Source of the DNA: Pelagophyceae sp. CCMP2097
Lineage: Eukaryota; Sar; Pelagophyceae
NCBI GenBank assembly: GCA_026770575.1
Contig: MU657175.1
Span: 158,895 to 212,861, forward strand
DNA: 53,967 nt
Reading direction: 5' to 3'
The notes under the pieces are model-generated. The model ran no database searches, was not told the DNA's origin, and worked only from the letters and a program-made list of their open reading frames with translations. Positions within the stretch are counted from its first letter, which is position 1. Every line of letters starts with the position of its first letter. The position numbers were made by a program, and so were the translations under genes. Positions 26,201 to 50,200 of this stretch are shown here, one piece after another.

Positions 26201-29200
26201 CGAACTCTTCCAATGAGACGCCGCCGGAAGAATCGGCGTCTAGGATTTCGACCAAGGTGTCGATTTCCACCGACTTGACGTTGACGCCCAGCGTGGTGAT
26301 CATCGACCGAAGCTCGGACGGGTCCAGAACGCCTAGAAAGCGGAGGTTCTGCAACGCTTTGCCATCGGGCTTTGCCATCGGGCTCCGCCATCGGGCTTCG
26401 GGCTTCACCATCGGGTTCCGCCATCAGGCTCCGCCAGGGGGTCACCGGAGACGAGAGCTGAAGCACTGTCGCCGTCCGGACCTGACGGCGCCCTCGTCGA
26501 GGCGACACAGTCGCTCGTGAGTTGATCCCGATCGTCGACGAGGCTCCTTTTGCTATGATTACGGGGCCTCGTAGAGGGGAGACCAAGACCGTCTCGTGGA
26601 CAGTTTAGCGGAGCGGGCACCCGATGCGCTCTTCGGCGGACCTCTTCGACGTCGTCTCGAGTGGTCGACTTTGGTCTGGGGTTCAACACCCCTGCTCTGG
26701 CAAAGTCCCAGGAGCAGGGACGGTCACCATTCGGATCGGGTTGGGTTGCTCAATCTGTGCCGCACCCTCGGGTCGCGGGTTTGTCGAGCGACCAAAGCCG
26801 TCTTCGAAGGTTCGGGTTCGGACCACGGCCAAACCCACTCAAAGACGGCTCGGCCAAAACGCGCAAACCCGGAAAACCCGACCCGCAGGCTGCGGGCAAA
26901 CCCGAGCCCGCCGCTGCTCCTCGAGAAAGCCCCTGGAGACGGTCCCTGGAGACGGCCACTCGAAACGGCGCCTTGAAACGGCGCTTCGGGAAGGCCCCTT
27001 TCGACGGCCCTGGTCGACGGCAATTCGAAACGGCGCCTTAAGACGGCCCCTGGAGACGGTGCCTCGAAACGGTCACTCGAAACGGCCCCTTTCGATGGCC
27101 ATTCGAAACGGCGCCTTGAGACGGCTCCTCGGGATGACACTTCGAAATGGCGCCTCGAGACGGCTTCTCTCTCCGGCCCCTCGAGACGGCTTCTCGAGAC
27201 GGCCTCTTGAGACGACCCCTCGAGATGGCCATTCGAAACGGCGCCTTAAGCCAGCCTCTCGAGAGGCTCGGAAGGTCTCTCAGATGGTTGCTTGGGCGGT
27301 CCCTTGGACAGTTCCTTTGGACAGTTACTTTGACGGTCCCTCGACGGGCTCTCTGTGACAGTCGCTTTGATTGGCGGCCCTTCGACGGTCCCTTGGACGG
27401 TCACTCGGCTGCCGGCCTCTCGACTGCAGCCCCTCTGCGACATCCCCTGGACGGGCCCTCGGGCGGTCGCTCGGACGGTCCCTCGGAGTCGCCGCGGCGG
27501 TCCGGTCTCTTGCAAGGAACCCTGCGTGGGGGCTTGAGAGGGGCCTTGAAAAAGGCCTCGCAAGTAGCTTGCTGAGGCCTTGCAAGTGGCCGCGAAAGAG
27601 GCCTTACAGGGGCCCGTCCAAGGGCCCTTCAAAGAGACCTTGCAAGCGACCGCGCAGAGGCCGTGCAAGTGGCCACAAAAGAGGCATTGCAGGGCCCGTC
27701 CGGAGGGCTCTTCAAGGGCCCTTGAAAGAGGCCGCCCAAGAGGCCTTGTAAGTGACCGCGCATTCGGCCGTGCAAGTGGCCGCCAAAGAGGTCTTGCAGG
27801 GGCCCGACTGTCAAACACCCGGTGTTGGCGCCGTACAGCCAGGAACAAGGGCGGTGTATTCGAAGCGAGTCGGGTTTTCAATCACAGGCTGTGCCGATCC
27901 CTCGGGTCGCGGGTTTGTCGAGCGACCAAACCCGTCTTCGCGGGTCGGGTTCGGGTTTGTGCCACGGCCAGACGCACTCAAAGACGGATCGGCCAAAACG
28001 CTCTAACCCGGCAAGCCCGACCCGCGGGTTGAAGGGCAAACCCGAACACGCCCCTGCAAGGTGCCTCTTGAAAGGTCCTCTTGACGAGGTCCCTCTGGCG
28101 AGGTCCCTCTGGCGAGGTCCTCGTGACAAAGGTCCCAGTGAAAGGTCCCTCTGGCAAGATTCCCGTGACAAGGTCCCTGCGACAAGATCCCTGCGACAAG
28201 ATCCCTGCGACGAGAAACCCCGTCACAAGGTCCCTTCGACAAGGTCCCAGTGACAAGGTCCCTGTGAGAAGCCAGTGTCAAGGTCCCAGTGAATCCGGGA
28301 CGACCGCCCGTGCCACCGAAACCTTTGGAAAGCTGTCTGGCGACGTCGCCGTGACGAGGGCCCTGAGTCCCCGAGACGAGGGACCCTAACGCAAAGGTCC
28401 CTCTGGCAAGAGTCCCCGTGAAAAGTGCTCGTGACGAGGTCCCTGTGACAGAGTCTCTGTGACAAGTTCCCGTAAAGGTCCTTTCTGACAAGAGTCCTAT
28501 GAAAAGGTCCCAGTGACGAGGCCCATCTGACAAAGGTCCTCAGTCAAGAGCTCTCGAGGTCCCCTCGACGAGGTCCCGGTGACAAAGGGCCCGGTGATAA
28601 AGGGCCCGGTGATAAAGGGCCCGGTGACAAAGGGCCTTTTGACCTGTTCCCTGTGACAGGGTCGCCGTGACAAGGACTCTACGACAAGGCCTGTGTGACA
28701 TTGTCCAATGACAAGGTCCCCGCGACACGTTTCTCGCAAAGAGGTCCTTGTAACGAGGTCCCTTTAACGAGATCCTGTGACGAGAGCCCCTTACAACGAC
28801 CCTTGGAAGGGCTTTGAAGAGGTCCCTATTCGACGAGGTCCCTCTGACTCGGTCCTTGTGGTAAGAGTTCCAGAGCCGAGTTCCCCCTGACGAGTGCCGT
28901 GACGGGGTCCCGATTAGAAGATCCCTGCGACGACGTCCCCACGGCAGGCGACAAGGTCTTTGCGACAAGGTCCCTGCGACAAGGTCCCTGTGACAAGGAC
29001 CCTGCGCCAAGGTGCCTGTGACGAGAAACCCCTAACAAGGTGCCTGTGACGAGAAACCCCTAGCAAGGTCCCTTCGACAAGGTCCCTTCGACAGGGTCCC
29101 TGTGACAAGGACCTCGTGACAAGGTCCCTGTGAGAAGAATCGTGTGAGAAGGTCCCCGTGAAAGGTCCCCGTGGCAAGGTCCCTGAGACAAGAACCCTGT

Positions 29201-32200
29201 GACGGCCCCTCTGCGGGCGCGGAGACGGCCCGGAGAACGGGCTTAGAGACATACCCAGAGACCGTCCCAGAGGCGGCCCCGGAGACAAAGATTCCCTCGC
29301 CAGTCCCAGAGGCACCCCCTGGCCGAGGTCCCACGTCTCTAAGTCGAGGACCCTGTCACAACGTCCCTGTGACAAAGTCCCTGTGACATGGTCACTGTAA
29401 CAAACTGCACAAGGTCACTGTGACAAGAGCTCTGTGTCACGGTCCCTTTTCCCCTATGGAAGGTCCCCGTGCCAAGGTCTCGCGCCAAGCTCCTTGTGTA
29501 AAAGGGCCCAGTGACTAGGTCCCTATTTCAAAGTCCCTATTTCAAAGTCTCGTGACCCCGTCACAAGAACACCGTAACAAGGTCCCTTTGACAAGATCCC
29601 CGTGACAAATTGCCCATGAAAGATCCCAGTGCAAAGGTTCCAGTGCCAAGGTTCCAGTGACAAGGTCCCTGCGACAAGAACCCAGCGACAAGGTCCTTGC
29701 GACAAGAACCCAGTGGCAAGGTCTCTTTGACGACGTCGCTGGAACGACGTCGCTGCGCCAAGGTCCCCTTTGACAAGGTCCCTTCGACAGCTTTCCCATG
29801 AAAGGTCCCTGCGCCAAGGTCCCTGCCGCCAAGGTGCCTGTGACAAAGTGTCGTCTCAAGGATCGAAAAGGGACCCCCCAGAAGTGGCCGTGAAGAAGGG
29901 CCCTCCAAAAGGACCGCCCTCTGCTCTCGCCCGGTCCAGGTCGGCTACGTTCGAGAGGGGCCTTGTCTTATCTCGGGGGGCGTTTCCGAGGGCCCGTTTC
30001 CGAGGACCGCCCCGAGTCATTTCTTCGAGGAGCCGCCCCTTTGGCGTCGTCGAGAGGCATCGAAACAAGGCCTCAAGTCGAGATGGACCCTATACGCGGA
30101 TCCTCGAGCGCTCCTCGACCAGAGGGAGCGCTCAAAGGGACCCCCTTTGAGCCATGTTCCCAAAGCCGTCGGCGCCGGACATCAGGGCGCGCGATCCGTT
30201 GAATGGATCCTTTTATACGAGCCGGTTCGAGAGACGGTCAATTCATCCACCGTCGAGCGCGACCGAGTCGAGGAGCCCCCAATAAGGACCGTCCGGAGGG
30301 ACCGTCCAGAGGGACCGTCCCGAGGGTCGACAAGGGACCGCACCGCACCGCCGTGATCTGCCGTCGCAGTCCGCCTCGGCCACATTCGAGAGGAGCCGCC
30401 TCCAAGGGCCGTCAAAGGGGAACCAAAGGGGAACCAAAGGGGCGCCGTCGAGAGGGACCTCGATAAGGACCCTCGAGAGGATCCGTCAAGAAGGGGTCGC
30501 CGTCGGCCCCCGGGGGGTGCAAAGGTCAAGGGTTCGTCCGGCTCCGGACGGAGAAACCGTCCAGAGGGGCCGTTTCGGAGAGACCTGGACCCTCCCGGGG
30601 AACATTCACGAGGGACCCTCGAGAGAGCGACGCCCTGATCCCTTTGCCGCTGCCGAGGTCCGGGTCGGCCACATTCGAGAGGGGCCCTCGAGAAGGGACC
30701 TCGCAGTAGGACCGCCTCGAAGGGCCGTTTTGAGGGACCGTTTTGAGAGACCGTCTCGAGGGACTGTCAAGAGAGACTGCCTTTTGCCCCGGTCCCTCAG
30801 CCGTCGCCCGGTCCGCGATGGCCACCGTCCAGAGGGACCGTCTCGAGGGACCTCGCAGAGGGTCCGTCTCGAGGGACTTTGCAGAGAGGCCGTCTCGAGG
30901 CCTCTCGAGAGACCGTTTTGAGGGACCGTCTGGAGAGACCGTGTAGAGCAAGCGGTGGCGGCCTCTCCGTTGGGGGCCTGCCCCCTTTGACGCGCTTTGT
31001 TTCTGCCCCGTCTCGGCCTCGCACTCTCAAGTTTTCCGCACTGACCTGTCTGGGCCTTCTCTCGTCGACACTCGCCGGTCCCGTCCAAAACGCCAAAGGA
31101 GGTGCGTCGCAGTCTTTGGGGCCAGCAGCCAAGCGACCGCCCGAGGGCCCGTCCGAGGGGTCGCCGAAGGGACCGTCGAAAGAAGGACCGTCCGAGGGCA
31201 CGTTCAAAGGACCGTTCTCGCGACAGTTCTTTGGACAGTCCGCTGTCCAAACTTTTGACAGTCCGCTGTCCAAAGGACCGCCCAAGTGTTGTTCGAGCAC
31301 CCGTCCAAGCCACCTCACAAGAGCAGGACCGCCCGAGGGTCCAAGGGACCACCAAAGGGTCCGTCGAGCGACGGTCCGAGCGACCGTCCCAGGGTCCGTC
31401 CAGGGGACCGCCGTCGATGGACCGTCGCAGAGGGACCATCCAAAAGACTGCCGCGCGACCATCCAAGGGACCAGTCCAAGGGACCCTCAAAGGGACCGCC
31501 CCGCTCTCCTCTCAAGCACCCCGCTCGCCCCGCACCGACCCGCTCTCCAGGTTTCCACACCGTATTTGTGCTCTCCAGTTGTCCACACTCCGCGTGTAGT
31601 AATCCTATGGGAAACGTATAGGAAATGTATAGTAAAACGCACCTGTGCCATCGGCATCGACGAGATCGAACATCTCCACGACGCCGACGTCCCGCGCGCG
31701 AATCGTCGCCAGCAGCTGGCGCTTGATCAGGAAGAGGCGGTACTGCGGGTCGAAGTAACTTCGAAGTTCGTGGAACATGACCAGAGGCGGTCTCTCACTG
31801 CGAAGCTCCCCAATATCAAAGCTGCGCCTTCTCAAGGGAAGCGGCGCCAGTGCGACGGAGTAGCGCACGGCGCGCTGCGCTGCTTGTAAGTTGGCGGCGA
31901 TTAAGGCTTCGGCGGTCTCGTAGTCGACGGCGTTTTTCTTCACGAGCCCAAGGGCGGGACCTAGACCGCCGATACGCACGCGGGCGAGCCGGAGGCATCG
32001 TACGCCGGGCCTCGGACGCGCGGGCGAGCCGCAGGCAGCCTCGCCGGGTTTCGCCGCAGGGCCTCACGGGACCCGCGGGCCCCTCTTCGACAGCCTCTCT
32101 CTGACCCCACTCGCACCCTTCTCGAGGTCTAGCAGACGCGCAAGTTCTGTGAAACACTGGGGTGACGCACCCGTCAATAAGAGAAAGGCGTTCAGCCTCC

Positions 32201-32348
32201 CGTCCTCCCCGACGCCGGCCTGCCGCAGCGGGTCGCTGTAGATGGAGGAGCCACTCCGGGCCGAAGCGGCGCTTAGGCGAGAAGAAGCTTTGCGTAGGAG
32301 GCCACGACGCGCATCGAAGTTCATAGTGCTAATAGTAGGCCGCGACAT
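23204..32348 (-). CDS. EF-hand calcium-binding protein with a 5.3-kb satellite intron
   Basis: Predicted complement exons 32348..32117, 31960..31643, 26332..23676, 23632..23204; 1,211 residues. Three EF-hand loops: 179-190 (DADGTG joined to VLDPSE), 215-226 ([12 protein letters not shown]) and 279-290 ([12 protein letters not shown]), all with Asp at 1 and 3, Gly at 6 and Glu at 12. The first loop is split by the intron 26333-31642 (donor GTGCGT, acceptor TTTCTAG). Joining the exons restores a canonical loop, an [10 protein letters not shown] helix and proper spacing to loop 2, which strongly supports the model. After about residue 300 the protein is disordered: Lys/Ala/Pro-rich, an RS/RD-rich tract, then acidic stretches. 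The 43-nt intron (23633-23675) and 156-nt intron (31961-32116) are phase-consistent. Likely a soluble Ca sensor or scaffold; partners unknown. Reading through the intron 3' end gives a false Met start at 26411. Confidence 0.85.
26690..26920. repeat. Intron module copy 1
   Basis: Carries GGTCGCGGGTTTGTCGAGCG, CGGCCAAAACGC and several AACCCGACCCG words. The same block occurs at 27820-28060 in this orientation and inverted at 45480-45670, 47405-47550 and 48113-48310, all within predicted introns. No coding. Confidence 0.75.
26930..27290 (+). repeat. 13-nt satellite array, block in EF-hand intron
   Basis: Degenerate units of GAAACGGCGCCTT/GAGACGGCCCCTC type, mostly 13 nt, on the plus strand, with interspersed CGATGGCCATTC-like variants. 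Belongs to the array superfamily filling intron 26333-31642. Confidence 0.85.
27560..28060. repeat. Intron module copy 2, long form
   Basis: First part (27560-27815): repeating words such as GGCCTTGCAAGTGGCCGC and GGGGCCCGTCC. Second part: the AACCCGACCCG-rich block. The same two-part module is found inverted at 45480-45860 and 48113-48520, including the shared junction word CTGTCAAACACCCGGTG. A ~500-bp unit is thus present in introns of two different genes. Confidence 0.75.
28065..29860 (+). repeat. 14-nt satellite array (GACAAGGTCCCTGT type)
   Basis: Well over a hundred degenerate units built on GACAAGGTCCCTGT, mostly 14 nt, all on the plus strand except brief variant patches (for example 29200-29330, which are 12-13-nt GGAGACGGCCC-like). 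Open frames in all six directions arise because 14 is not a multiple of three and stop words are rare in the monomer. Confidence 0.95.
29865..31560 (-). repeat. Satellite array, opposite orientation (GACGGTCCCTC type)
   Basis: Units read GAGGGACCGTC on the plus strand, the complement of GACGGTCCCTC. Mostly 13-15 nt, more diverged than the neighbouring block, and with embedded CGGTCGGCCACATTCGAG-type unique stretches. It lies nearest the intron donor (31642). Together with 26930-29860 it forms a converging arrangement. Confidence 0.85.
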
Positions 32349-33960: not shown

Positions 33961-33974
33961 GCCGGGAAGCGTAC

Positions 33975-34165
33975 ACGGACACAGTGTGCTCGCATCCATG
34001 CGACATCTGAACCCGTCGGGTATCCGCGTCTCTCGGGGGTCCGCGTCCGTCGGGCGTCTGAATCCGTGGAGGATCCGCGTCTGTCAGACGCCTGCGTCTG
34101 CAGGGCGTCTGCGTCCGTGGAGGGTCCGCGTCTGTGCCGCATTCGCGTCCGCGTCGCGTCCGCAT
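33975..34165. repeat. Degenerate GTCTGCGTCC-type repeat tract
   Basis: Irregular units such as GGGCGTCTGCGTCC, GGATCCGCGTCTGTC and GGGTCCGCGTC repeat at about 15-33-nt spacing. Not related in sequence to the intron satellites. Confidence 0.6.
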
Positions 34166-34195
34166 GGACCCTTCTTTGTAACACAAAAGGCTTTA

Positions 34196-34560: not shown

Positions 34561-34950
34561 TATATACAAATTGTTTTCAGGTGAGGACACCTGAAGCCTG
34601 TCTTAAGTTTATGTACGGTTCGCCCGTCGTAATGCCACGGCTTAACGCTCATTACCGAAATAGCGATTAAATCAATGCCATGTCGACTGATCAAGCCCCA
34701 CGTTCAGTTTTTTGCCACACGTATCTCGTTTTCCTATTTTTTTGCCGAGCCAGCTATTTTGGATTTATTTCCGCCCTCTTTAACGCTTTATTCCGGCCCT
34801 CACGGACATACGGTAGCCTCCAGTTTACGGGAGATCTCGTGGATCCTCACGGACATTTAGCCAACGGACCGATCTTTCCGGGATGTCCGTCCCATTCTAA
34901 CTCACCTTATATTTGGACACGCGCCGGATAAGCGCGTCGATAGCTGCCTA

Positions 34951-37440
34951 TTGCGGCTCGGTCTACCGACAGTGGAACATGACATCGAAGACGGACCGTG
35001 GCAGTGCTGCACACTCGGCCGAATGAAGTACAAGCCGACTTTTGCGTCCTCGCATACGACGAGGAACCGCCCGCCGGGCACGGTCGTCGAGTTTGATCTT
35101 CAGGGGCCGTTTGCGTGCACAACCATGGGAAACGCAAGGTATGCCGGTGACTTTGTTTTTCGTAATCCTCCGCCCGCGGTTTACTCGGTACTTCTTGCGT
35201 CAAAAGCGGATGCGGCCCACGAAGTCGCGGCGTTTACGGCGCACGCGCGCATGATGGGTTTTCCCGTTAGCATGATTCGTACGGACATGGCTCCGGACCT
35301 TATTGGGAGCAAGTTTGCAGAGGCTGCGGCACGCGTCGGTCTCGCATCCGAATTTCTCTCGCCCGAGAAGCACATGACGGGAGAGTCTGGACACTTACGC
35401 ATAGCTGACCTCATGCGGTCCAACAACACACTCGTAGATGGCACTCTCAGTGCATCTTTCTGGGGTTATTCCTACCTTTATGCAACGGCGCAGATAAATT
35501 TGACGGGTGGATACCTACGTGCAATGGAGCAGGGGGATCAGGACTGTAGCGCGTTTGCACCATACGGCAGCATTATTGCGTACCGTGTTACGGAAAACAA
35601 GATGTTCAATCGCGCCCACCTCGGTATTTATCTCGGCGCCTGTACGCCGGCTGGCCCGGACGCTGTGTACGTCGTACCACTTCCGGAAAAGGGCAAGATC
35701 CAGAGCGATCTTCGTCTTGTGAGGACGTCGTCCTCGGTGTGTTTTATAGCCGCTCCAGAGGAGCACGTCGATAAAATCACCATCGAGACAGCGCTACGAG
35801 ACGTGTCGAGAGCAGAAATCGAGGTGCCCTTCCATAGCGGCCTCTTCGTGGCATATTCTACACCGATCCCTCTTCTCGACGAGGCCCACGGCATTATGGA
35901 CTCGTTCTCTGTACAAGGCGTTAAGGACACAGCTGTGATGTCCACAAAAGCTTGGTGCTCTCGTGCTCAATCTGTCGTTTGTATGACGTTGGCAATGCTT
36001 CCGNNNNNNNNNNNNNNNNNNNNNNNNNNNNNNNNNNNNNNNNNNNNNNNNNNNNNNNNNNNNNNNNNNNNNNNNNNNNNNNNNNNNNNNNNNNNNNNNN
36101 NNNNNNNNNNNNNNNNNNNNNNNNNNNNNNNNNNNNNNNNNNNNNNNNNNNNNNNNNNNNNNNNNNNNNNNNNNNNNNNNNNNNNNNNNNNNNNNNNNNN
36201 NNNNNNNNNNNNNNNNNNNNNNNNNNNNNNNNNNNNNNNNNNNNNNNNNNNNNNNNNNNNNNNNNNNNNNNNNNNNNNNNNNNNNNNNNNNNNNNNNNNN
36301 NNNNNNNNNNNNNNNNNNNNNNNNNNNNNNNNNNNNNNNNNNNNNNNNNNNNNNNNNNNNNNNNNNNNNNNNNNNNNNNNNNNNNNNNNNNNNNNNNNNN
36401 NNNNNNNNNNNNNNNNNNNNNNNNNNNNNNNNNNNNNNNNNNNNNNNNNNNNNNNNNNNNNNNNNNNNNNNNNNNNNNNNNNNNNNNNNNNNNNNNNNNN
36501 NNNNNNNNNNNNNNNNNNNNNNNNNNNNNNNNNNNNNNNNNNNNNNNNNNNNNNNNNNNNNNNNNNNNNNNNNNNNNNNNNNNNNNNNNNNNNNNNNNNN
36601 NNNNNNNNNNNNNNNNNNNNNNNNNNNNNNNNNNNNNNNNNNNNNNNNNNNNNTCAGGCTGTGCGCGAGCGGCTGTCGGCGCGTTTTGACATGACATGGC
36701 AAGACACGATTTCGGACATTGCTGCGATCGAAGTTTCTTACTCGGAGGGCGGCTCTATTTCACTCAGTCAGGGACGGGCCCTGGATTCGTTTCTTAAATT
36801 GGTCGGTTATAATGAAGTTACGGCCATCCCGGAGACTCCACTTCCCGCAAAATGGTCGGTTGATCCGGACGCAGCTTATCCTATTCCGGCCGGCGGCTCT
36901 CCTCCACGGCCTTTGGACCCACCGAAGGCACTTGGATCTCTTCAGTATTTGCGCGCATGCTTTCCACAGATTGCATTGTCAGTGCACTCGCTGCTCACGG
37001 CCGTCAAGGTATGGGCACCGACGCATGCACGCGCTCTTGTACAGACGGTTCGCTACCTCGTGGATGTACGTAATCAGCGCATCACTTTTTCGTCGAGGTT
37101 CAAAGGCCGTTTTGAGATTACTGCATATGCGGACGGGACACTCGCAAGCGAGCTAGCTGTGGGAGCACGCGGACTGGCGCTGTCACGCACGGGAGGAGTA
37201 ATTTGGGTGAACGGCGCCAAGGTCTTTGATGTGAGCCGCCGCCAGACGTCGACAGCTTTTGACACTTAGATGTCATGCCTGACTGCAATGGCACATTTGG
37301 TTAAAGCGATTAAGGCTGTTCGCTCACTTATTACACAAGTGGCGGGTGAGACTCTTCCGCCGACGGTTCTTTGGGCCGACAATCGCACGGCGCTCAAGAC
37401 GATTCGCAAGCGCATTCTTGGCCCGAATGTACGGCACCTC
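34951..37440 (+). pseudogene. Copia pol: integrase, RT and RNase H, interrupted
   Basis: One long frame from about 34951 has an integrase core (Asp in EFDLQGPF, Asp in IRTDMAPDLIG, Glu in EKHMTGESGH). A connector runs into the gap at 36004, and after the gap the RT 3' part resumes (QAVRERLSARFDMTW, LSQGRALDSFLKLVGY) followed by the RNase H region (AYADG). A TAG stop at 37267-37269 stands where copy 1 has CAG. The RNase H tail (LWADNRTALKTIRK) continues beyond it to about 37440. RT catalytic residues fall in the gap. Probably inactive because of the stop. Confidence 0.9.
36004..36653. other. Assembly gap (650 N) within copia copy 2
   Basis: The gap corresponds to the RT part present in copy 1 at about 11275-12050. 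Collapse or misassembly between the two copia copies is a plausible cause. Confidence 1.
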
Positions 37441-37837: not shown

Positions 37838-38010
37838 TTTTGCACTCCAACCCGTTCTCTCAGAAGTGCACGATTGCACTCCAACTCGTTCTCTCAGAAG
37901 CGCACTTTTGCACTCCAACTCGTTCTCTCAGAAGTGCACTTTTGCACTCCAACTCGTTCTCTCAGAAGTGCACTTTTGCACTCCAACTCGTTCTCTCAGA
38001 AGTGCACTGC
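37838..38010. repeat. 34-bp tandem array, copia copy 2
   Basis: About five units of the same 34-bp monomer as 9995-10325, in the same position relative to pol and the terminal repeat. One unit carries a variant (GAAGCGCAC). Confidence 0.95.
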
Positions 38011-38602: not shown

Positions 38603-41165
38603 TTAATGCAACTTCAAGTTCTCCGAACAAATCGAGACGGGGCTGCGCCGCTGGACGACTATACGTCGATGTCCGCAGGGTCCGGCGAGCGCACGTCCGG
38701 CGGCGTCGCTGTGCGGTGTCTGGCGCCGGCCCTGCGAACCACCGTCGGGGACGACGTGGCCGGTGCAGGAGAAGCGCTGCCGCACGCCGGCACACCGCAT
38801 GCCCGTCTCAGTGACGTAGATGCCTTCCGCGCCCAGCTGCCGGGGGTGGAGGCTCCCACCTGCCGCCTTGAACACGTCGTCGCTCATCCCAAGGATCTCG
38901 GGCCAGGAACCCGCGAGTTCGAACTGCTGCGAGAGCGCGCGGTGGGCCAGGGGCCACTGCGTGAGACCCAGCGCCCTCGCCCGGACCTTCATCGCCAAGG
39001 CGAGGGCTGGCATCGTCGACAGAGGCTCAAGCGCACGCCGCCAAGCGCGCGCCGCGCCGCTTCTCTACAAATTGTAGCGCGGCCTTCCAATGTTTGAAAG
39101 GCACCACGGTCTTTTTCTGAACATATTTTGTGTTCAAACGAAATCTGTTTCAAGAGTTCTCCAAACAGCTGTGGAGAGGGGTTCGTTAAGACGCGGCGTA
39201 AGAGGCTTAGCGGGGACTCGGGGTCCTTTCGCCGTTCGCCCCGCGATGGACGAGGGCCTGGCTGCGCTGGAGACGGGCGCTCAAGACGGGCGCTCGTTTA
39301 CGGGCCTTCAAGGCGGCTCCTCTTTACGGGCCCTCTTTACGGGCCCTCTTTACGGGCTCTCGAGACGGGTTTCGAGACGGGCGCTCGAGACGAGACCCTC
39401 GAGACCGCTTCGTTTGACGGGCGCTCGAGGCGGGCGCTCGAGGCGGACGCTCTGCTCTGTACGAGCCCTTTGCAAGGACCCTTGAAACGGCTCCTCGAGA
39501 CGGGCCCTCTGTACGGGCCCTTGAGACGGGCCTTCTCGACGGTCCTTATCGACGGTCCTTCTTGACGGGCGCTCTTTTACGGGCCCTCTATACGGTCCCT
39601 CGAGGCGGGCGCTTGAGACAGGCGCTCTGTTACTGGCCCTCAAGACGACTCCTCTGTCCGGACCATCGAGTCGGGCCATGGAGTCGGGCGCTCGAGTCGG
39701 GCGCTCGAGTCGGGCGCTCGAAGCGAGACCCTCGAGAAGACTCCGATTGACGGGGCCGTACGGGCCCTCTAGACGGGCGCTCTAGACGGGCCCTCGAGAC
39801 GGGCGCACGAGACGGACGCTTGTGACGGTCCCTCGAAATGAGCGCTCGAAACGGGTGCTCTTGTAAGGGCCCTCGAGACAGCTATGCTTATGGGCCTCTG
39901 CACGGGCCCTCGGGACGGTCGCTCGAGACGGGTCCTCGAGACGGCCCCTCTTCACGGGCCCTATGCACGGGCGATCGAGGCGGGCGCTCAAGACGGGCCC
40001 TTGAAACGAGACCCTCAAGGCCGCTCCTCTGAACGAGCGTTCGAGGCGGGCGCTCGAGACGAGACCCTCGAAACAGCTCCAATTGACGGCCCTCTTGACG
40101 GGCGCTCGAGACGGGCCCTCTTGACGGGCCCTCTTACGGGCCTTCGAGGCGGGCGCTCTTTGGAGGACGCACGAGACGGGCCCTCTTTACGGGCCTTTTT
40201 TTGCGGTCTCTCTGCGCCAGGGATCCCTATCGACGGGGTCGCCCTTTGACGGGCTCGATTGACGGGCGTTTCTCGAAGCGGCTCCTATGGACTCGTTCCC
40301 CTCGAGACGAGGGCCTCGGTTTACATTTCGCCGCGTACCAAAACCCGCGATAGGGGCCTTTTCGGTGCCCGCGCCAGGGAGCTCGTCGGGGCCCGCGCCA
40401 GAGAGCTCGTCGGGGTTTGCGATAGGGGCTTTTCGGGACCTGCGATAGGAGCCTCGCGAGGGACTTTTGCGAGGAGCTGCCCAGAAGACAAAGAGGGCCG
40501 TCTGAAGGGCCGTCGAGAGGGCCTTCTATAGGACCGCCTGAAAGGCCGTCTTGAGACCGGTTTAAGGGCCATCTCGACGATCGTCTCATGGCCGTCTGAA
40601 GGGCCGTCTCGAGGACAGTCTCGAGGACCGTCTCGAGGTCGTTTGAGACCGTCTCGAGGGCCGTCACCAGGACCGTCTTTAGAACCGTCTCGATGCCGTC
40701 AAGAGGGCCGCCAAGAGACCGTCCCGAAGACTGTCTAAAGGACCGTCTCGTTGCCGTCTAGAGGACCGTCTTCAAAGCTGTCTGAAGGGCCGTCTGAAGG
40801 ATCTTCTCAAAGGCCGTCTCGAGGGCCGTCTCAAGACCGTCTAAAGGGCCGTCTCGAGGACAGTCTCGAGGTCGTTTTAAGACCGTCTCAAGACCATCTC
40901 GAGCACTGTCTTCAGAACCGTCTCAATGCCGTGAAGAGGGCCGTCTCGAGGGCCGTCTCGAGGGCCATCTCGAGCCCGTCTCGAAAACCGCCAAGACGTC
41001 TGGAGGTCGTTTTGAGGCCGGCTCGATGTTGTCAAGAGGGCCGTCAAGAGGACCGTCGAGAGAGGCCGTCGAGAGAGGCCTAAAACACACGTGGCGCGTT
41101 ACAGCCGCCTCCCTCGTGACAATGGTGCGAGTCGACGAAATGCCGCCGAACCGCTTCCGGCGCAT
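38603..41165 (-). CDS. Unrecognised protein gene with a 2.0-kb satellite intron
   Basis: Exon 1 is 41165..41091 (25 codons, from ATG, MRRKRFGGISSTRTIVTR). Exon 2 starts at 39064 after a TTTGTAG acceptor; both are phase 0, giving a 2,026-nt intron (39065-41090, donor GTGTGT). Exon 2 reads RSGAARAWRRALEPLSTM and continues through MKVRARALGLTQWPLAHRAL and GSWPEILGMSDDVFKAAG, an amphipathic, well-composed stretch. If read straight to the stop at 38603 the product has 178 residues, but the end becomes Gly/Arg-rich and a GTGGGA donor at 38852 could begin another intron. I do not recognise it. The start lies 119 bp beyond the stop of the giant gene on the same strand. Confidence 0.45.
39190..40250 (+). 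repeat. 13-nt satellite array (GGGCCCTCGAGAC type)
   Basis: Regular 13-nt units GGGCCCTCGAGAC / GGGCGCTCGAGAC on the plus strand, the least diverged array in the window. GGGCCC and CTCGAG are each palindromic. Lies inside intron 39065-41090. Confidence 0.95.
40480..41080 (-). repeat. Satellite array, opposite orientation (GACGGCCCTCGA type)
   Basis: Units read GAGGGCCGTCTC on the plus strand, with AAGACCGTCT variants; 13-15 nt. Inverted relative to 39190-40250, with a diverged spacer between (40250-40480). The end abuts the donor at 41090. Confidence 0.9.
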
Positions 41166-41283: not shown

Positions 41284-44200
41284 CTACTCTGCGAGCACGG
41301 CAGCGCTGCTGGCGCGGGAGAGCGTGTAGAACCGGTGCGACGGGCCCATGACGGCGTTGACGGCGCGTGGGACGATCTGGATTTCAGTCGTAAGAGGTGA
41401 AGCTCCATTTCCGCGGTCGAAGGCGGCGTTGACGTGCAAATTAAAGGGCTTGGTGCACAGAGCCAGCTTGTTCTTCAGCCGCGTCACTTTGAACGGGTGC
41501 GCCGGGCCGCTGCCGACTAAAGCGGCGTAGGCTCGGACGATGGACTCGGCGTCGTCGCAGACGACTGTCGCTCGAAGCGGGTCAGTGATCTTAGCCGCAT
41601 GCGGCCAGTTCACCCCCGCGGGGCCGTCCTCGGCGCGGTACGCCTCGACCTTGGCGCCCATGCGCGCCGCGCTCTTGACGGCCGTCGATGGGCCAGACTT
41701 GTAAAGTTCGCATCGAGTACGCCAGGCCACATCATCGTCCGCGAGCTCTTCGCCGTCGGCCGCCACGTCGGCGGTCCTCGAGCTGTCGGTCCTCGCGGTC
41801 AACAAGCCGTCAGTCCTCGCGCCGTCCTTGGCCTCGCCGTCGGTCCTTGGAGCACCGTCGGTCCTTGGAGCACCGTCGGCCCTGCCTCGGCCTGCCTCGT
41901 CGTCACCTTGGCAGAGCAGCAGACGGAGCTTTTCGATAAACTGCGGGTGGGCCTGCATGGCGGCGCACCGCAGCACATGGGGCAAAGCGGTCGCGTCTAG
42001 AGCGCCGAGCATGCCTCCTCCGTCTTCGCCGCCGAGGTTCTTCGCCCACTGGACCAAGTGCGAATCGCTCAAAGGCGCCTGCAGCACCGCATCGCCAGCA
42101 AAGTCGATCAACGCTGCTAATTGCACCCCCCACTTTGGCTGGATCAAAATTTCCGCTGCGGCCGCCTCCATGACCATCCAGCACCGAAAGTTCGCCGCGT
42201 GCGCGTGCAACGTAAGATCAAAAAAAGCGTCCTTCTGCGCCGCAACGTCCGGAGCATAATCGTCGTTTCGTCGCCGCGGAGAAAGCATGCGCCAGAAGCT
42301 TTTCATCAAAGATCCGCGGAAGCCCGAGTCCGTGGTCCGGACACTGGCGCGGACGGTTTCCGGCACAGCGTGGCCGGCCTCAAATTCGTCGTCCTTCAAA
42401 GCGAGGACACGATTGCTGCGTGGCGGCGTGACGTCGAAGCGTTTTGCGGAGATGTCGCGAACGTCGACGCGCTTAGCGGAGTAGTCGCGCTTGGCGCCGG
42501 GCGGCGATTCGCGCTTCGTCTCCGCAATCGCCTCGGCTTTCGCGGACCGGCGTCTCACGGCCTGCGGCACCGTGGCCTCGGCGTAGTCCTCGCGGCCGAC
42601 GGATTCCAAAATGGCTGTTAACGCTGCCGGGAACTTGCAAAGTTCCAACGCTTGCAAGGGCACCGCTGCCACCGCGAACCTGGAAAACGCATCGTCGACG
42701 GCGCCTTCGCCGACGTCCGCAGCTAACGGTCCTAAAACGGCAGAAACGTCGTTTTGGAATTGCCGCCGCGTGACCGTTTGTCGGGCAGCTCGTTTTGCTC
42801 TTGTCGTCGCTAAAAGCGCCGCGTTGGCCAACAGCCTCGGCTGGTGCGCCTCCACCAAATCCCGAAGAGGCTGCTCCTTGGCCCAGACGTCTTTTAAAGG
42901 AAGTAAGTCTTTTGTGAGGTACGCCCATCCAGAGCCCTTTGAACAAGCCTCATCTTCCAAAATGTTTAAAGCGGCCGAGAAGACGACGTCGTCCATCACG
43001 CGCACGTTCATGCCGACTCTTAATCGTTTGAAAGTTTGTGCGTCGAAACGTTTTCGGGCCTTGATGAGCTCTAAAAGTTCCGAGACCTCTTCGGAACGAA
43101 AGGCCCTGTACAACCTCGCCGAGATCAGGATGGCAATCGCAGACACTCCATACGCGAAAAAGTCGCTGGCCTTTTCCGACAGGAGGCCGGCGTAGAGGAC
43201 TAAGGCTAAAGAGATGCACGCCAGCACGAAGATTTGTAAGAAATTGACTAAAGCGTTATGTCCTCTGTTGATATACGGCCGAACACCTTGCGTTACATGC
43301 GCCCACCCGAAAATAATAACGAAGAGGACGGAGAATCGGAGACCTTTGCCCGTGAAGGGAACTAGAGCGCCGCAAATCACCAGACGGATTTCGAGAGCCA
43401 AAATCTCATAATACCACACCGCCGGCCGCACATGCCTCGTGAATATCGATAAAGCGCCGTCTCCGCGTTGGTTTAAGCGGTTCAGCTTGAGTTTTATTAA
43501 AAGTGAGAGAGGTACAACAAGGACGTAAAAGACGAGCAAAGTTGCGGCCGCCCCCTCAAACTCACTATAAGCGTCGCCGCCGCACCGGACAGCATAGTCA
43601 TATTCGAGCCAGCGCTCGCGCGCGATTTCCGAGACTTGGAAGGTTTGGGAGCAACTGTAGAAAGTGAAGATGTAAGAGCAGACGTAATTATGCAGCAACA
43701 CGAGCACCAACCAGAACAAGGAAGCTGCGGATCGGACCATGTCCCGGCCGGGGTCACTCTTGTTCAAGTAGTGGAAGAATCCGTTCGAGACGCCGTTTGA
43801 CTTTTCGTTTGACTTCACAAAAGCGACGATGCCGACGCCCGTGAAGAGAAAAACGCCAAACGCGAGCGGAAATAGCGTCCAAAATAAAAGCAATTGAAAA
43901 TATTCCATGTTGTAATAACACTGCATTGATGGCACGGCGAAACTGAGGTCGAAGGTGATGAAACCGAATATTCGAAGGATCGTTTGCAAAGGTTCTGGAT
44001 AATCGACGTTTTCGATCGAAATGAACCGAGAAACCGTGGAAACCGAGTACCACACCTAGAGAAAAATACGTTTGTTGACATCGACCCCTCCGGTGTTAAG
44101 GCCCACCCAGGGGGGGGTATAAGCAAGCAAGGGCCTTCGGGCCTGGAAGCCTGGCTTCGTTTCGATGTTTACCACGTCCCAGTGACGAGGCCTTTCCGAC

Positions 44201-47200
44201 TCGGTCCCTCTGATAAGATTTCCCCAAGGCCCCCGTGACGAGGGTCTATGAAAAGGTCCTTTGACTCGGTCCCTGTGGTAAAATTTCCAGAGTCGAGGTC
44301 CCTCTGGCGAGTTCCCTGTGACGGGGTCCCTGTGACAGGGTCCCTCTGACGAAGACCTGCGACAGGGCCCCTGGCAAGTTTCCGTAGGAGTCTCTACTCG
44401 CTGGAGGAAATGTATCACGGGGTCCTGGTCGCAGGAACCTTGGCACAGTGTCACCACGGGGACCTCGTCACTGAGACGTAGACTCGGGGACCTCCTCATA
44501 GGGACCTTGCCATAGTGACCTCGTCACGGGGACTTTGCCAGGACCTTGTGGAGCATCATGACGGGGGCTTCGTTACGGGGCCCTCGCCACGGGGTCCTTG
44601 CCATGAGGACCTTCCCGGACCTTGTCACAGGGACCTTGTCACGAGGGCCTCGTCACGTGGTCCTCATCACGGGGTCCTTGCCACGGGGACCTCGTCACAG
44701 GGACTTTCTCGCAGGGACCTCGTCGCAGGGACCTTGTCACAGGGACCGCCGCCACAGGAGCCTCGTCAACACGACGTTGACGTTGGCATGGAGACCTTGC
44801 CACGGGTTTTCCACAGGGACCTTTGTCATAGGGACCTCGTCGCACAGAGACCTTGGCACGAAGGGATCTGTCCAGATGCCGTTACGAGGCCACGGGACCG
44901 TAGTCAGAGGGACCTTGGCAAGGTGTCACCACCGGGTCACTGAGACGTTGACACGGGGATTCTGTCATAGGGACCTCGCTGGGGACGTCACGGGGACCTT
45001 TTCACAGGGGCCTTGTCACGGGAACCTCGTCATACGGACCTCGGCACGGGGACATTTTCACGAGGCCTTGTCACGAGGACCTCGTCGCGGGACTTTGTCC
45101 CAGTGACGACGTCTTTCTGACTCGGCCCTCTGGTAAGATTTCCATAGGCCCCGTGACGAGGGCCCCTGTGGCAACAAACGTCCCCTTGACCAGGCCCCTG
45201 TGGACAAGGACCCCAAGACAAGGCCCATGTACCATTGTCCAATGATAAGTTCCCTGAGGCGCGTCCCGCAACGACGTCACCGTCGCAAGGTCCCCTTTTT
45301 CGAGGTCCCTGTGACGAGGTCCAATTGACCAGAGTTCCAGTCGAGGTCCCCGTGACGAGGGCCCCCGCAGTCTCGTTTCAACATCACTGCCTCCAAAAAA
45401 CGTTTCGGGCCCTCCGCGCCGCCTCGGGAAGCTGGGGCAATGGTAGAGTGCTGGCCAAAACGCTCTCAGTCTCAAGACGGCAGGAGCAGGGAGGGGTTCC
45501 GGTTTGCCCTGAAGACCCGCGGGTCGGGTTTGCGCGTTTTGGCCGACCCGTATACCCGCGGGTCTCGCCGTGGCCCAAACCCGAACCCGACCCGAGAAAG
45601 ACGGGTTCGGTCGCTCGCCAATATCGCGACCCTTTAAGTTTGGCACAGATTGAGCAACCCAACCTGAAGACACCGTCCCTACGTCTGGCTTTACGGCGCC
45701 ACCACCGGGTGTTTGACAGTCGGGCCCCTGCAAGGCCTCTTTGGCGGTCACTTGCACGGCCTCTGCGCGGTCGCTTGCAGGGTCTCTATGAAGGGCCCTT
45801 GAAAGCCCTCCGGATGGGTCCCTGCAAAGGCCTCTTCGAATTGGATCGCACAGCTCCGGAACCACACTTCTTTCGAGTGGCGGCCCTCCGATCGGCGCCC
45901 GCGGCGCGGATCGGGCCTCGGGAGCCAAGGTCCACGCGACGTTTCGAGGGGCCGTCTCGAGTGGTCATCTCGAAGGGCCGTTTAAAAAGGCCGCTTTGAG
46001 GGGCCCTCTCGGGGGCAGTCTCGAGTGACTGTCTCGAGTGGTCGTTTCAAAGGCCCGTTTGAAGGGACCGTTTCGAGGGGCCGGCGAGAGTGGCTTTCTT
46101 GAGGGGCGATGGGGCCGTCCAAAGGCGTCGTTTCGAGGCGTCATCTCAAGGGGCCGGCATGAGAGGCATTCTCAAGGGGCCGTCCAAAGGCATCGTTTCG
46201 AGGGGCCTTCTCAAGCGGCTTTTTCGAGGTACCGTCTCATGCGCCGTCTTGAGCGGCCGTCTTGAGGCGTCGTTTCGAAGTGCCACCTCAAGGGATCCTC
46301 TCGATGGGGCCGTCCAAAGGCGCCGTTTCGAGAGGTCTTTTCGAGGGGCCGTCTCGAGTGGCTTCCTCGAGTGGCCGCCTCGAAGGACCGTCTGAAGGGG
46401 CCGTGTTTCGAGGGGCCCTCTCGAAGGGCCGGCGAGAGGGGCCGTCTCGAGGGGCCGTCTGACAGAGGGGCCGTTTCGAGGGGCCCTTCGAGAGGCCGGC
46501 GAAAATGGCCTTCTCAAGGGGCCGTCTCAAGGCGCCGTTTCGAGGGGCCGTCTCGAGGGGCCAAGGTGAGGGGCCTTCTCGAGGCGCCGCCTCGAGGGAC
46601 CGTCTAAAAGGACCGTTTCGAGGGGCCCTCTCGAGTGGCCTTGTCGAGTGGCCTTGTCGAGGGGCCGTCTGAGCGTTTACGGGCCTCAAAAAGACGGTCC
46701 GTCGGCGGTCCCGGAAACGGTCCCGGAGACGGCCCGTCGGCGGTTCCGGAGATGTTCACAGAGACGGTCCAAGAGACGGTCCCAGGGACGGTCCCAAAGA
46801 CAGTCCGTTGACGGTCTGTCGACGGTCCAGGCAGACCATCCCTGAGACGGTCCGAATGCGGCCGTCGAAAGGGACACTTCTTCAAGCAAGGGCCTTCGGG
46901 CCTGGAAGCCTGACTTCGTTTCGAGGTTTATTGACATGAACCTCTCCGGACTCGAGCCCCATCCAGGGTGGATTTTAAGCAACCCCCCAGTTCCCCGCCA
47001 AGGACGCACCTGTACGGCGGCGACGACGAACCACTTCGACTGGGCAAATGCTTTTGCCTTCAAAACGCGCTTCCTCGTCTTTTGCACGCCCGCGCAGGCG
47101 ACTGCGAGAGTCGACGTTACGGCGAGAAGAGAGAGTAAACCTCCAAACACTAAAGCAAAAAATAACGGCAGCGCCGACGTCCCGTCGCAGGCGGCGCAGC

Positions 47201-50200
47201 CGCCGCCCTGCGAAAGAGTAGATGGTCTTGGATAATGCCCCGTCGTGCACAGAGCGCAGAGAGGCCCTATCGAGTCCGGCGCGCAAAGCCGGGAACCGTG
47301 CGTTGACACCGGATCGTAAAAGGCCTCTTCGTACCCAACGCCGACACAGGCGCAGTCGTCACCGGTGCAGTAGTCCTATGCGTGGTCTTGTGATGGCCTT
47401 TATTTCATGCAAGAGCAGGGACGGGTTTGCCCTGAAGGCCCCCGGGTCGGGTTTGCCGTGCGTTTTGGCCGACCCGTCTTTGAGTGGGTCTGGCCGTGGC
47501 CCGAACCCGACCCGAGAAGACGCTCGACAAACCCGCGATCCGAGGGTGCGGAACAAATTGCTCTCCGGACGGGCCCCTCCTCTTTGGCGGTCAAGGCCTC
47601 TGCAAGGTCACTTGCGTCGGCCTCTTTGAAGGGCCCTATCGAGCCCCCACGCAGGGTTCCTTGCCAGTGTTCGGGCCCTTTCGGGGTCCCTTCACCGCTC
47701 CTCGCACGGGATGCCATATGGTTTGATACAAGCCCCGTCCAAGCGACTTTCCGAGGCCCGTCCAGGGGACGTCGCATCGAGGCCGCAGTCGAGAGGCCGA
47801 GTGACCATCCAAGGGGCCGTCGAGGGGCCGTCGTCAAAGCGGCGGTCACAGAGGGCCCGTCGCGAGACCGTCCAAGGAACTGTCCAAAAGTATTGTCCAA
47901 GGGACCGCCCAAGCGACTGCCCGAGGGACCGTCCAAGCCTCTCCAGGGGGGCGTTCCAAGGCGCCGTTTCGAACGGCCGTCGAAAGGGGCCGTCTCGAGG
48001 GGCCGTCTCGAGGGGCCGTCTCGAGGCGCCGTTTCGAATGGCCGTCGAAAGGGGCCGTCTCGAGGGGCCGCCTCGAGGGGCCGTCTCCAGGGGCCGTCTC
48101 GAGGAGCCGGAGATAGGAGCAACGATGGGTTCGGGTTTGCCCTTCAACCCGCGCGTCAGGTTTACCGGCTTTGCGCGTTTTGGCCGACCCGTCTTTGAGT
48201 GAGTCTGGCCGTGGCCCGAACCCGACCTCTCGCAGTCGGGTTTGGTCGTTCGATAAACCCGCGACCCTTTGGGTTTGGCACAAATTGAGCAACCCGACCC
48301 GACCCGAGTACACCGTCCAGCAGTCCTGGCTGTACAACGCCGCCACCGGGTGTTTGACAGTCGGGCCCCATGCAAGACCTCTTTGGCGGCCACTTGCACG
48401 GCCTCTGCGCGGTCGCTTGCAGGGTCTCTTTGAAGGGCCCTTGAAAAGACCTCCGGACGGGCCCCTGCAAGGCCTCTTCGAATTGAATCGCACAGCTCCG
48501 GAACCACACGACTTTCGAGCGGCGGCCCTCCGAAAGGCGCCCGCGGCGCGGATCGAGCCTCGGGAGCCACGGTCCACACGACGTTTCGAGGGGCCGTCTC
48601 GAGGGGCCGTCTCGAAGGGCCGTTTGAAGGCACCGTTTCGAGGGACCCTTTGAGGGGCTGGCGAGAGAGAGGGGCCTTCTTCAGGGGCCGACTCGAGATG
48701 CCGCCCAAAGGCGCCGTTTCGAGGCGCCATCTCAAGAGGCCGGCACGAGGGCCTTCTCGAAGGGCCGTCCAAAGGCGCCGTTTCAGGGGGCCTTCTTAAG
48801 GGGCTATTTCGAGGCACCGTCTCAAGCGCCGTCTCGAGAAGCCGTCTTGAGGCGCCGTTTCAAAGGGTCGCCTCAAGGGGCTCTCTCAAGGGGCCGTCTA
48901 AAGGCGCCGTTTCGAGGGGACTTCTCGAGGGACCGTCCAAAGGGGGCGTCTCAAGTGGCCTTCTCGAAGGGCTGGCGAGAGGGGCCTTCTCAAGGGGCCG
49001 TCTCGAAGGGCCGTCTGATAGTTTCGAGGGGCCCTTCTAGAGGCCGGCGAGAAAGGCTTTTTCGAGGGGCCTTCTCGAGCGGCCTTCTAAAGGCGTTGTT
49101 TCGAGGGACCGTCTCGAGGGGCCAACGAGAGGGGCCTTCTCGAGGCGCCGTCTCGAGGGACCGTCTAAAGGGGCCGTTTCGAGGAGCCTTCTCGAGGAGC
49201 GTGCAAGGGCCCTTGAAAGGGACCTTGCTAGCGACCGCGCAGAGGCCCGGCCCGGAGAATTTTCAATGGCAAAAGCGGCGATGAGATCGACTCACCTTGT
49301 CTGCGCATTCGTAAAGTTGGTGCGACTGTGGGAAGAAGCGGTAGAAGCCGCGCTTGATTGGCAACGTCTCGATCGTGTAGAGCTGGTAGCCCACAACAGC
49401 TGACGGCGCGTCCAAAGGCGCTTCCCGCTCGCATGCGGCGCCTCGCGGGCACGGAATGCACCTGCCCTCGTGGTGGTACTCAAAATGAGCGCAGGCGATG
49501 CAAGAGGCCGCGAGTAAGCCGTCGGCGCGTTGGACGAAACCGACGGGGCATTCTGAGAGGGTTAATGTCACAACACGAGTCTGCAGACTTGACAAAGGCA
49601 CGAGGAACTTCAGGCGGTGCATGTCGCCGGGTAAGCCGCGAATCGTCGTCGCGTCAAACGTCGCGACGCCGTCCTTGCACACCGCGACCAACCCAGACGC
49701 CTGGACGGCAGACCCGGCGTCGTCTAAAAACACGGCGCTCACCGCAGTCGTCGAGTCTGACCGGACGCGTTCGCCAAAGCCGTCGACGAGGACGACGTGG
49801 ATGGGTGGCACGACGGCGTTAGGCACTGCCATGATCATAGAAACATTCACCACCAAAGCCGTCGCCGGCGTCGCCGCGAAGGACCCATAAGCTGCTCGGT
49901 TGCCCGAAGAAAAGACTTGTGCCTCGAAAAGGCCTGTCGGCGCCTCCAACGCATACGAAACCGCCGCCCCACCGCCTTTCAACGCCTTATTTTCGGAAAA
50001 TCGCACCGCCCGCTTCTGTGGAGGCACGGCCTCGACGGTGAAGCTTAAAGGCATCGTCTGCAAGCCATTTGTTGACCAAACGGCGGTGGACTTTTGGCAA
50101 GGTCCGTCGAAGAGTTGTAGAGTGGCTTCTAACGTGCCCCCAAACCAAGCCGACCCTCGTCGGTCAAAGGCCGTCAAATCGAATGACCCGGCGCCGAGGC

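What the first reader, a model, noticed from the sequence alone, without database searches (positions are those of the whole stretch)
26333..49295. A GC-rich satellite that appears only inside introns
Four predicted introns are huge: 5,310 nt (26333-31642), 2,026 nt (39065-41090), 2,954 nt (44056-47009) and 1,920 nt (47376-49295). The other 16 introns I could model are 43-315 nt. Each of the four is packed with the same short-repeat superfamily, and I see no array of it outside them. Genes of three unrelated kinds are involved. The exon joins are independently supported by phase and, in the EF-hand gene, by reconstitution of a calcium loop. This suggests either a repeat that spreads through introns or an intron-expansion process specific to this genome.
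Basis: partly seen in the sequence, partly recalled or inferred. Interest (0 to 1): 0.88.

Follow-up and report, generated by a model that had tools for sequence, protein, structure and literature searches.

The report
Repeat-swollen young introns in an alga
In a marine alga whose sampled introns are nearly all under half a kilobase, one GC-rich short repeat packs a minority of predicted introns out to 1-5 kilobases, several of them at sites where sister genes have no intron at all, so young introns likely serve as the place where this selfish DNA lands and grows.

Summary
The arrays are real and concentrated in four blocks. Three of the four proposed introns hold up: i3 and i4 (channel-like gene) are bridged by five sister proteins, i1 (EF-hand gene) by seven of eight homologs. 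The fourth (39065-41090) has no support: it lies behind the channel gene's stop codon, and no homolog backs its one open join.

Protein matches identify the genome as Pelagophyceae sp. CCMP2097. New facts: (1) 11 of 11 close paralogs of the channel gene read through both junctions in one frame, so i3 and i4 were probably gained; at all six positions that I could test, nearest relatives in the genome lack the array intron. (2) 58 of 59 kinesin/myosin introns are under 0.5 kb; the one long intron, picked blind to arrays, holds the same 13-mer array. All nine homology-placed introns over 0.9 kb carry the superfamily. (3) The 13-mer reads mainly in transcript sense in 14 of 17 introns. (4) A 0.5-kb module accompanies arrays in at least 40 places.

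"Only inside introns" is not supported: arrays also lie in a 15-kb stretch without detectable coding. Best reading: young short introns were colonised by a composite, minisatellite-bearing repeat. Splicing itself was not observed.

The parts
26333..31642 (-). i1: 5,310-nt predicted intron of an EF-hand gene; arrays of 12-, 13- and 14-bp units from 26923 to 31504
   Evidence: junction spanned by 7 of 8 homologs; nearest paralog C71 uninterrupted
39065..41090 (.). Block 2: array tract 39252-41072, two halves of opposite orientation; not supported as an intron, lies behind the channel gene's stop codon
44056..47009 (-). i3: 2,954-nt predicted intron of the channel-like gene, arrays 44198-46856
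   Evidence: absent from 11 of 11 close paralogs
47376..49295 (-). i4: 1,920-nt predicted intron of the channel-like gene, arrays 47763-49193
   Evidence: absent from 11 of 11 close paralogs
49296..50423 (-). exon upstream of i4 (5' limit = start of the open frame)
47010..47375 (-). exon between i4 and i3
41284..44055 (-). last exon of the channel-like gene, ending at the stop codon shared with relatives
31643..32063 (-). EF-hand gene, open frame upstream of i1 (5' limit not determined)
23322..26332 (-). EF-hand gene, open frame downstream of i1 (3' limit = stop of the frame)
48110..48589 (-). conserved ~0.5-kb module in i4 (holds a 219-bp element with 15-bp inverted ends CAGGAGCAGGGACGG)
45481..45947 (-). 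module copy in i3
27679..28057 (+). partial module copy in i1, antisense to the gene
26708..26921 (+). 219-bp inverted-end element alone, in i1, antisense to the gene
46887..46982 (-). ~95-bp dispersed repeat with a TTGC-type end near the 5' edge of i3; 40 candidates scored in the genome

Best explanation
In this pelagophyte alga a GC-rich superfamily of 12- to 14-bp tandem repeats, often accompanied by a dispersed 0.5-kb module, occupies predicted introns at positions where sister genes have none, and the likely course is that short introns were gained first and then colonised and swollen by this repeat, which would be spliced out with them. SHOWN: the arrays and the module; the exon joins by protein homology; absence of the intron from the nearest relatives in the genome at six of six positions that could be tested; short introns otherwise; the superfamily in nine of nine homology-placed introns over 0.9 kb; a transcript-sense bias of the 13-mer. 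INFERRED: that the introns are spliced in vivo; that intron gain came before repeat entry (the outer stretches of the long introns are not alike between introns on the donor side, as expected if the repeat entered an existing short intron); that the module is what disperses; and that the units then grow by slippage or unequal exchange. Why introns: exons do not tolerate inserts, and in transcript sense the 13-mers with C or G at the variable place contain no GT, so they offer the spliceosome no false donor site; this last step is a conjecture.
For: Paralogs: 11 of 11 close paralogs (60-66% identity) cover both i3 and i4 positions in a single open frame, read base by base; a distant paralog C74 (29%) also spans both. 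The nearest paralog of the EF-hand gene lacks i1 and two RRM-FAST paralogs lack the array intron before the L064 exon; a TMEM144 paralog (C95) spans the position of array intron 1; nine other myosin genes cover the position of the myosin array intron in one stop-free match (C44, C10, C94, C5, C293, C4, C526, C205, C61). Length: 42 kinesin introns estimated at 44-459 bp; 17 myosin introns, 16 of 48-295 bp and one of ~0.92 kb (one negative estimate dropped), the long one holding the 13-mer array. Nine homology-placed introns over 0.9 kb (i1, i3, i4, TMEM144 x3, STT3 x2, myosin) all carry the superfamily, eight by 13-mer hits, STT3 intron 1 mainly by 14-bp periodicity. 0 of 20 short kinesin intron loci hold two or more 13-mer hits. 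Dispersal: 1,650 exact 13-mers against 5 for the reversed control; module in 40 places, 40 of 933 candidates being scored, with 13-bp periodicity directly before it in 29 of 30 loci and 12-bp in the thirtieth, two of the 30 being the window's own. Edges: 0 of 15 donor-side pairs exceed the shuffled 95th percentile. Orientation: 14 of 17 introns majority sense, two-sided p = 0.013.
Against: No transcript was available; splicing is inferred. Of 34 non-window array loci, 21 hold no usable exon, so most arrays cannot be placed as intronic; C1:525001-540000 has arrays and no detectable coding in 15 kb, although the coding measure misses short exons. The window copy of the channel gene sits on a long branch with no well supported place among the paralogs, so intron loss in a retrocopied founder is not excluded. 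i1, STT3 intron 2 and the intron before the FAST exon do not show the sense bias (15:20, 19:20, 2:15), and introns of one gene are not independent. TMEM144 and STT3 were looked at because a module lay there; only the myosin intron is an array-blind test. 5 of 55 acceptor-side pairs of intron ends do exceed the shuffled 95th percentile.
Confidence: 0.6

Rival explanations
1. Giant introner: the composite repeat itself makes introns. It would insert into exons at AG|G sites with splice signals carried or co-opted, so intron and array arrive together.
For: Introns absent from relatives at six of six positions; transcript-sense bias; AG|GT...TAG|G ends of the introns placed by eye, which would allow an AGG target duplication; the 219-bp inverted-end element ends 17-37 nt before the acceptor in 3 of 11 introns; introners are reported in pelagophytes (PMC9481584, PMC9860276, passages read).
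Against: Intron ends are not alike between introns on the donor side (0 of 15 pairs); the myosin intron shows array but no module and has ~0.13 and ~0.25 kb of edge outside the array; the main module copy is antisense to the gene in i1, STT3 (L010) and L021; ordinary short introns appear to use similar signals (14 of 19 modelled end in CAG|G or TAG|G, by a model that favours such ends).
Confidence: 0.2
2. Passive tolerance: the satellite inserts and grows anywhere in non-coding DNA, and introns are merely where a reader sees it because exons stand on both sides.
For: Block 2 lies behind a gene, and C1:525001-540000 shows no coding; 3 of 19 classified exon boundaries facing array or module end in a stop and 1 has an ATG.
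Against: 15 of those 19 boundaries are splice-like (8 acceptor, 7 donor); the orientation bias relative to the transcript is not expected of a repeat indifferent to genes.
Confidence: 0.12
3. Old introns, lost elsewhere: the window genes keep ancestral introns, and the intronless paralogs descend from reverse-transcribed copies.
For: The window channel gene has a long branch among the 12 and no well supported position; retrocopied families are common in general (recalled).
Against: The distant paralog C74 also lacks both, and with C74 and C31 as outgroups the window gene falls among intronless copies (83/89, weak, outgroups very distant); the same absence recurs in the EF-hand, RRM-FAST, TMEM144 and myosin families; seven homologs of the EF-hand protein read through i1 as proteins, though their gene structures were not seen.
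Confidence: 0.18
4. Functional arrays: the repeats fold into stable RNA hairpins that help splice or regulate the long introns.
For: Block 2, i3 and i4 fold more stably than shuffles (z -10.6, -15.2, -4.8, eight shuffles each; i1 was not folded).
Against: The predicted fold does not bring intron ends closer than in shuffles for i3 and i4 (for block 2 the distance equals the smallest of eight shuffles); partly palindromic units would give such z-scores without function; units are diverged.
Confidence: 0.05

Closest known systems
Introners (introner elements) of Aureococcus and other algae (Gozashti et al. 2022, PMC9860276, passages read; intron-length peak near 210 bp in Pelagomonas, PMC9481584, passages read)
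   Same: Intron gain by a dispersed element in the same algal class; intron missing from relatives; ends compatible with AG|G-type sites.
   Different: The examples in those passages are short (about 70-210 bp); here the introns are 0.9-5.3 kb, filled with diverged 12-14-bp arrays, and their donor-side ends are not shared.
Satellite-filled gigantic introns of Drosophila Y genes kl-3, kl-5 (Fingerhut et al. 2019, PMC6508621, passages read)
   Same: Introns made up mainly of tandem satellite DNA while exons stay intact.
   Different: Those introns reach megabases on one repeat-rich chromosome; here kb-sized, on many contigs in a genome of otherwise short sampled introns, and at positions that relatives in the genome lack.
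MITE-type elements with terminal inverted repeats (general knowledge, recalled)
   Same: 219 bp, 15-bp inverted ends CAGGAGCAGGGACGG.
   Different: No target duplication apparent in the flanks of the 21 full matches listed, and the element mostly occurs inside the larger module.
GC-rich minisatellites (general knowledge, recalled)
   Same: 12-14-bp units in tandem, variable between arrays.
   Different: Dispersed over hundreds of places (430-630 clusters by extrapolation from C1), often together with a fixed 0.5-kb module.

Membership tests
Introner | Intron present in one gene copy and absent from the same place in relatives | tested here: met
   i3, i4: 11 of 11 close paralogs lack both; i1, FAST, TMEM144 and myosin positions likewise in nearest relatives; loss in paralogs not excluded
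Introner | Many introns share sequence from splice site to splice site | tested here: not met
   0 of 15 donor-side and 5 of 55 acceptor-side pairs above the shuffled 95th percentile; three of the four best acceptor pairs hold introns with the 219-bp element near the acceptor
Introner | Target-site duplication and/or terminal inverted repeats at the intron ends | tested here: inconclusive
   AGG at both ends is also the plain splice consensus; the inverted ends belong to an internal element
Satellite-filled gigantic intron | Intron length made up by tandem repeats | tested here: met
   9 of 9 homology-placed introns over 0.9 kb carry the arrays
Satellite-filled gigantic intron | Intron transcribed and spliced | not testable with these tools
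   no RNA data; protein homology only
MITE-type element (219-bp part) | Terminal inverted repeats | tested here: met
   CAGGAGCAGGGACGG ... CCGTCCCTGCTCCTG
MITE-type element (219-bp part) | Target-site duplication | tested here: not met
   16-nt flanks of the full matches show none by eye

The most novel reading that the evidence does not exclude
The satellite-bearing composite is a giant introner: it writes multi-kilobase introns into intronless genes in one step, in transcript sense, and its arrays are poor in donor sites in that sense, so that minisatellite growth inside the new intron stays invisible to the mRNA. It would be the first intron-making element whose body is a satellite.
Probability: 0.18. 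Interest if true: 0.85.

Novelty: new variant of a known kind. Interest (0 to 1): 0.58.

Why it matters
Why introns become long is an open question that is hard to study where everything is long. Here a 66-Mb genome with sampled introns of about 0.1 kb has a minority of 1-5-kb introns, and one repeat superfamily is present in each of the nine that were placed by homology. Because relatives without the intron sit in the same genome, the order of events (intron gain, repeat entry, growth) can be read from sequence, and the claim that young introns shelter selfish DNA becomes directly testable with one set of long reads.

Tried and rejected
Viral origin of the array: a 26-base array pattern had no match in IMG/VR contigs; this excludes little. 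Known RNA families in the window: none at gathering score. Hairpin bridging of splice sites: end-to-end distance not shorter than in shuffles for i3 and i4. Strict strand rule of the arrays: exceptions i1, STT3 intron 2, FAST upstream. Shared intron termini: none on the donor side. Target duplications of the 219-bp element: none seen. An acceptor argument against block 2 (TAG|A there, TAG|G in the 11 acceptors placed by eye) was dropped: those 11 were picked by eye, and the probable acceptor of L030 is also TAG|A. Treating 39065-41090 as an intron: not supported. PDB searches with the L029 and L028 exons gave no useful match; L029 is counted as 'coding', L028 rests on a weak Pfam match (E 2.6e-4, below the curated cut-off), as does L015 (PH, E 0.0012). 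In one search, exons overlapping repeats by more than 35% were dropped; its 'stop' for the L064 exon is a frame that runs on into the next intron. In some searches, intron lengths are gaps between matches less three bases per missing profile position; pairs out of profile order were dropped, one negative estimate. In print: library searches for CCMP2097 with intron (1 paper, on Phaeocystales), introner with Pelagophyceae (1), CCMP2097 with Pelagophyceae and genome (8), introner or pelagophyte (343, of which 25 listed), intron gigantism with satellite DNA (7) and at least three of intron gain, minisatellite, tandem repeat, introner (11) showed no title or abstract start on these arrays; of these papers only passages of PMC9481584, PMC9756366, PMC10366177, PMC9860276 and PMC6508621 were read. 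Huff et al. 2016 (PMC5684705) is not held; it was seen only as a reference.
Full report
WHAT GENOME. The window is C12:158895-212861 of a 66.18-Mb, 638-contig assembly. Translations of three stretches fetched from it (L067, L072, L075) are exact substrings of three NCBI proteins named Pelagophyceae sp. CCMP2097, and one contig (C53, 341,097 bp) has the length of the NCBI contig of the matching protein; the lengths of the other two contigs differ by about 10 kb. The published assembly is 85.8 Mbp in 1,716 scaffolds (PMC9756366, passages), so the held copy is not that file as printed; I take it as the same organism. On independence: P0001-P0005, used below as relatives, are identical over the tested region to five of the paralogs found in this same genome, so they are sister genes, not other species.

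THE OBSERVATION. Four blocks hold the arrays: 16 of 16 exact and 130 of 145 near matches to GAGACGGNCCCTC lie inside them, against 8 +/- 4 expected by a second-order Markov model of the blocks; outside, 15 near matches against 7 +/- 2. Units are 12 to 14 bp and diverged. The predicted intron lengths and GT-AG ends are right.

THE JUNCTIONS. Channel-like gene: the three exons join in one frame and five relatives align across both joins, without gap at i3 (5 of 5) and at i4 in 4 of 5 (P0004 has a one-residue gap four residues on); the sixth, P0006, starts downstream. EF-hand gene: the calcium loop is completed across i1 and 7 of 8 homologs, among them one from Aureococcus anophagefferens, span it without gap. 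The fourth proposed intron is unsupported. It begins 193 nt behind the stop codon at 41284, where P0001-P0003 end as well. One of its three joined frames is open across the join, from an ATG 24 codons before it, but its downstream part has no Pfam match, and no homolog search was made for it. I read block 2 as lying between genes or in an untranslated region; it is not disproved as an intron.

THE INTRONS LOOK NEW. A search of the genome with 260 residues around i3 and i4 gave 16 matches: the window's own three exons, 11 close paralogs (60-66% identity) that run through both positions in one open frame, and two distant ones, of which C74 also spans both. The bases at the empty sites were read in all 11: at i3 ten of eleven read CAG or CAA before GT; at i4 the site is plain coding. 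The EF-hand gene's nearest paralog (C71, 36%) lacks i1. Outside the window, an RRM-FAST gene on C1 (L064) has an exon that starts inside its RRM domain with arrays before and behind it; two paralogs have the RRM uninterrupted (the RRM was recognised by eye). A TMEM144 paralog on C95 spans the position of TMEM144 intron 1. Nine other myosin genes cover the position of the myosin array intron (profile position about 386) in one stop-free match. That is six of six positions tested. Loss is not excluded: the window channel gene has a long branch and no well supported place in the tree; with the very distant C74 and C31 as outgroups it falls among intronless copies at 83/89.

LENGTH AND ARRAY GO TOGETHER. 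Without regard to arrays I took the exon-by-exon matches to the kinesin motor (94 matches, 42 in-order gaps) and the myosin head (33 matches, 18 gaps). After subtracting missing residues, kinesin introns are 44-459 bp; myosin introns are 48-295 bp in 16 cases, one estimate is negative and was dropped, and one is about 0.92 kb. I then fetched that single long intron: a 13-mer array runs over about 535 of its 915 bp. TMEM144 (three introns) and STT3 (two) were examined because a module copy lay in one intron of each; all five gaps are over 1 kb and carry the superfamily; the STT3 gaps are wide enough to hide a small exon. With i1, i3 and i4 that makes nine of nine. 0 of 20 fetched short kinesin intron loci hold two or more 13-mer hits.

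NOT ONLY IN INTRONS. For 34 array loci outside the window (28 of the module loci and six stretches of C1 chosen for many hits) I classed every coding segment scoring at least 30. In 21 loci there was none usable. In the other 13, exon boundaries facing array or module were 8 acceptor-like, 7 donor-like, 1 with an ATG, 3 with a stop and 1 at an edge. So 15 of 19 classed boundaries are splice-like, but most loci are silent. C1:525001-540000 has six array clusters and no such coding segment in 15 kb without N; L060 and L062 are about one third N and were not used for this point.

WHAT THE REPEAT IS. Exact 13-mers number 1,650 against 5 for the reversed pattern; clustering of the first 100 on C1 extrapolates to 430-630 clusters in the genome. 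A 22-base pattern of the 14-mer kind has 25 exact matches, control 0. A ~0.5-kb module was found in 40 places (40 of 933 candidates scored), at 76-87% identity to the i4 copy. In 29 of 30 loci, two of them the window's own, 13-bp periodicity stands directly before it; in L033 it is 12-bp. The module contains a 219-bp element with 15-bp inverted ends, which also occurs alone; its end lies 17-37 nt before the acceptor in 3 of 11 introns. A ~95-bp dispersed repeat with a TTGC-type end lies near the 5' edge of i3. The myosin intron shows array only, so arrays can stand alone.

ORIENTATION. Counting near 13-mers per intron, 14 of 17 introns with at least five hits read mainly in transcript sense (two-sided p = 0.013; introns of one gene are not independent). 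By gene, for the nine placed by homology, 7 of 9. For the module, counting one main copy per intron: sense in i3, i4, L015, L017, L020, L025, L027, L028, L029, L030, antisense in i1, L010, L021; further partial copies in L020, L021 and L064 are of both kinds. The forms GAGACGG[C/G]CCCTC contain no GT in sense and one GT per unit in antisense; the form with T contains one in sense. That this explains the bias is my conjecture.

HOW IT WORKS, MOST LIKELY. The outer stretches of the long introns are not alike on the donor side (0 of 15 pairs); on the acceptor side 5 of 55 pairs exceed the shuffled 95th percentile, the best ones mostly involving the 219-bp element. By eye, the repeat-free edges of i3, i4 and STT3 intron 2 add up to about the length of an ordinary short intron; those of the myosin intron are longer, about 0.13 and 0.25 kb. 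Splice signals look ordinary (a rough model that favours them). This fits a short intron gained first, then entered by the composite repeat, then lengthened by tandem growth. The rival in which the composite brings the intron with it explains the sense bias and the missing introns equally well but not the unlike ends, the antisense copies or the module-free myosin array. I put the two at 0.6 and 0.2.

VERDICT. A sound observation with one unsupported intron and an overstated 'only'. It is a new variant of two known things, introner-type intron gain and satellite-filled long introns, met together in one small genome.

Noticed in passing
9998-10304 (+) and 37838-38008 (inverted): The same 34-bp tandem repeat (94% matches) occurs twice in the window in opposite orientation, 9 and 5 copies.
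   Followed up: no
36001-37000 and 18001-19000: AT-rich islands (19.5% and 31.7% GC) in a window of about 60% GC; the first lies inside an 802-aa open frame, 34861-37269.
   Followed up: no
46887-46982; L040-L058: A ~95-bp dispersed repeat with a sharp TTGCTTGCTTA end, 40 candidates scored of 78, SINE-like in looks.
   Followed up: partly
L064:3429-5022 and C81, C554, C2 and others: A very large RRM/FAST-type repeat-protein family: 253 matches to one exon in this genome (80 of 832 candidates scored), mostly in long open frames.
   Followed up: partly
window 19341-19916; C1:543020-543361: Tandem 126-bp repeat that looks like WD40 units; similar units on C1.
   Followed up: no
L008, L060, L062, L107 (C1): Runs of N of 1.5-3.6 kb in four fetched stretches; in L008 the run ends exactly where an array starts, so array counts may be too low.
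   Followed up: no
C95:18585-18740 and C95:19351-19376: The TMEM144-like exon on C95 has an array repeat about 0.6 kb behind it: perhaps another array intron.
   Followed up: no
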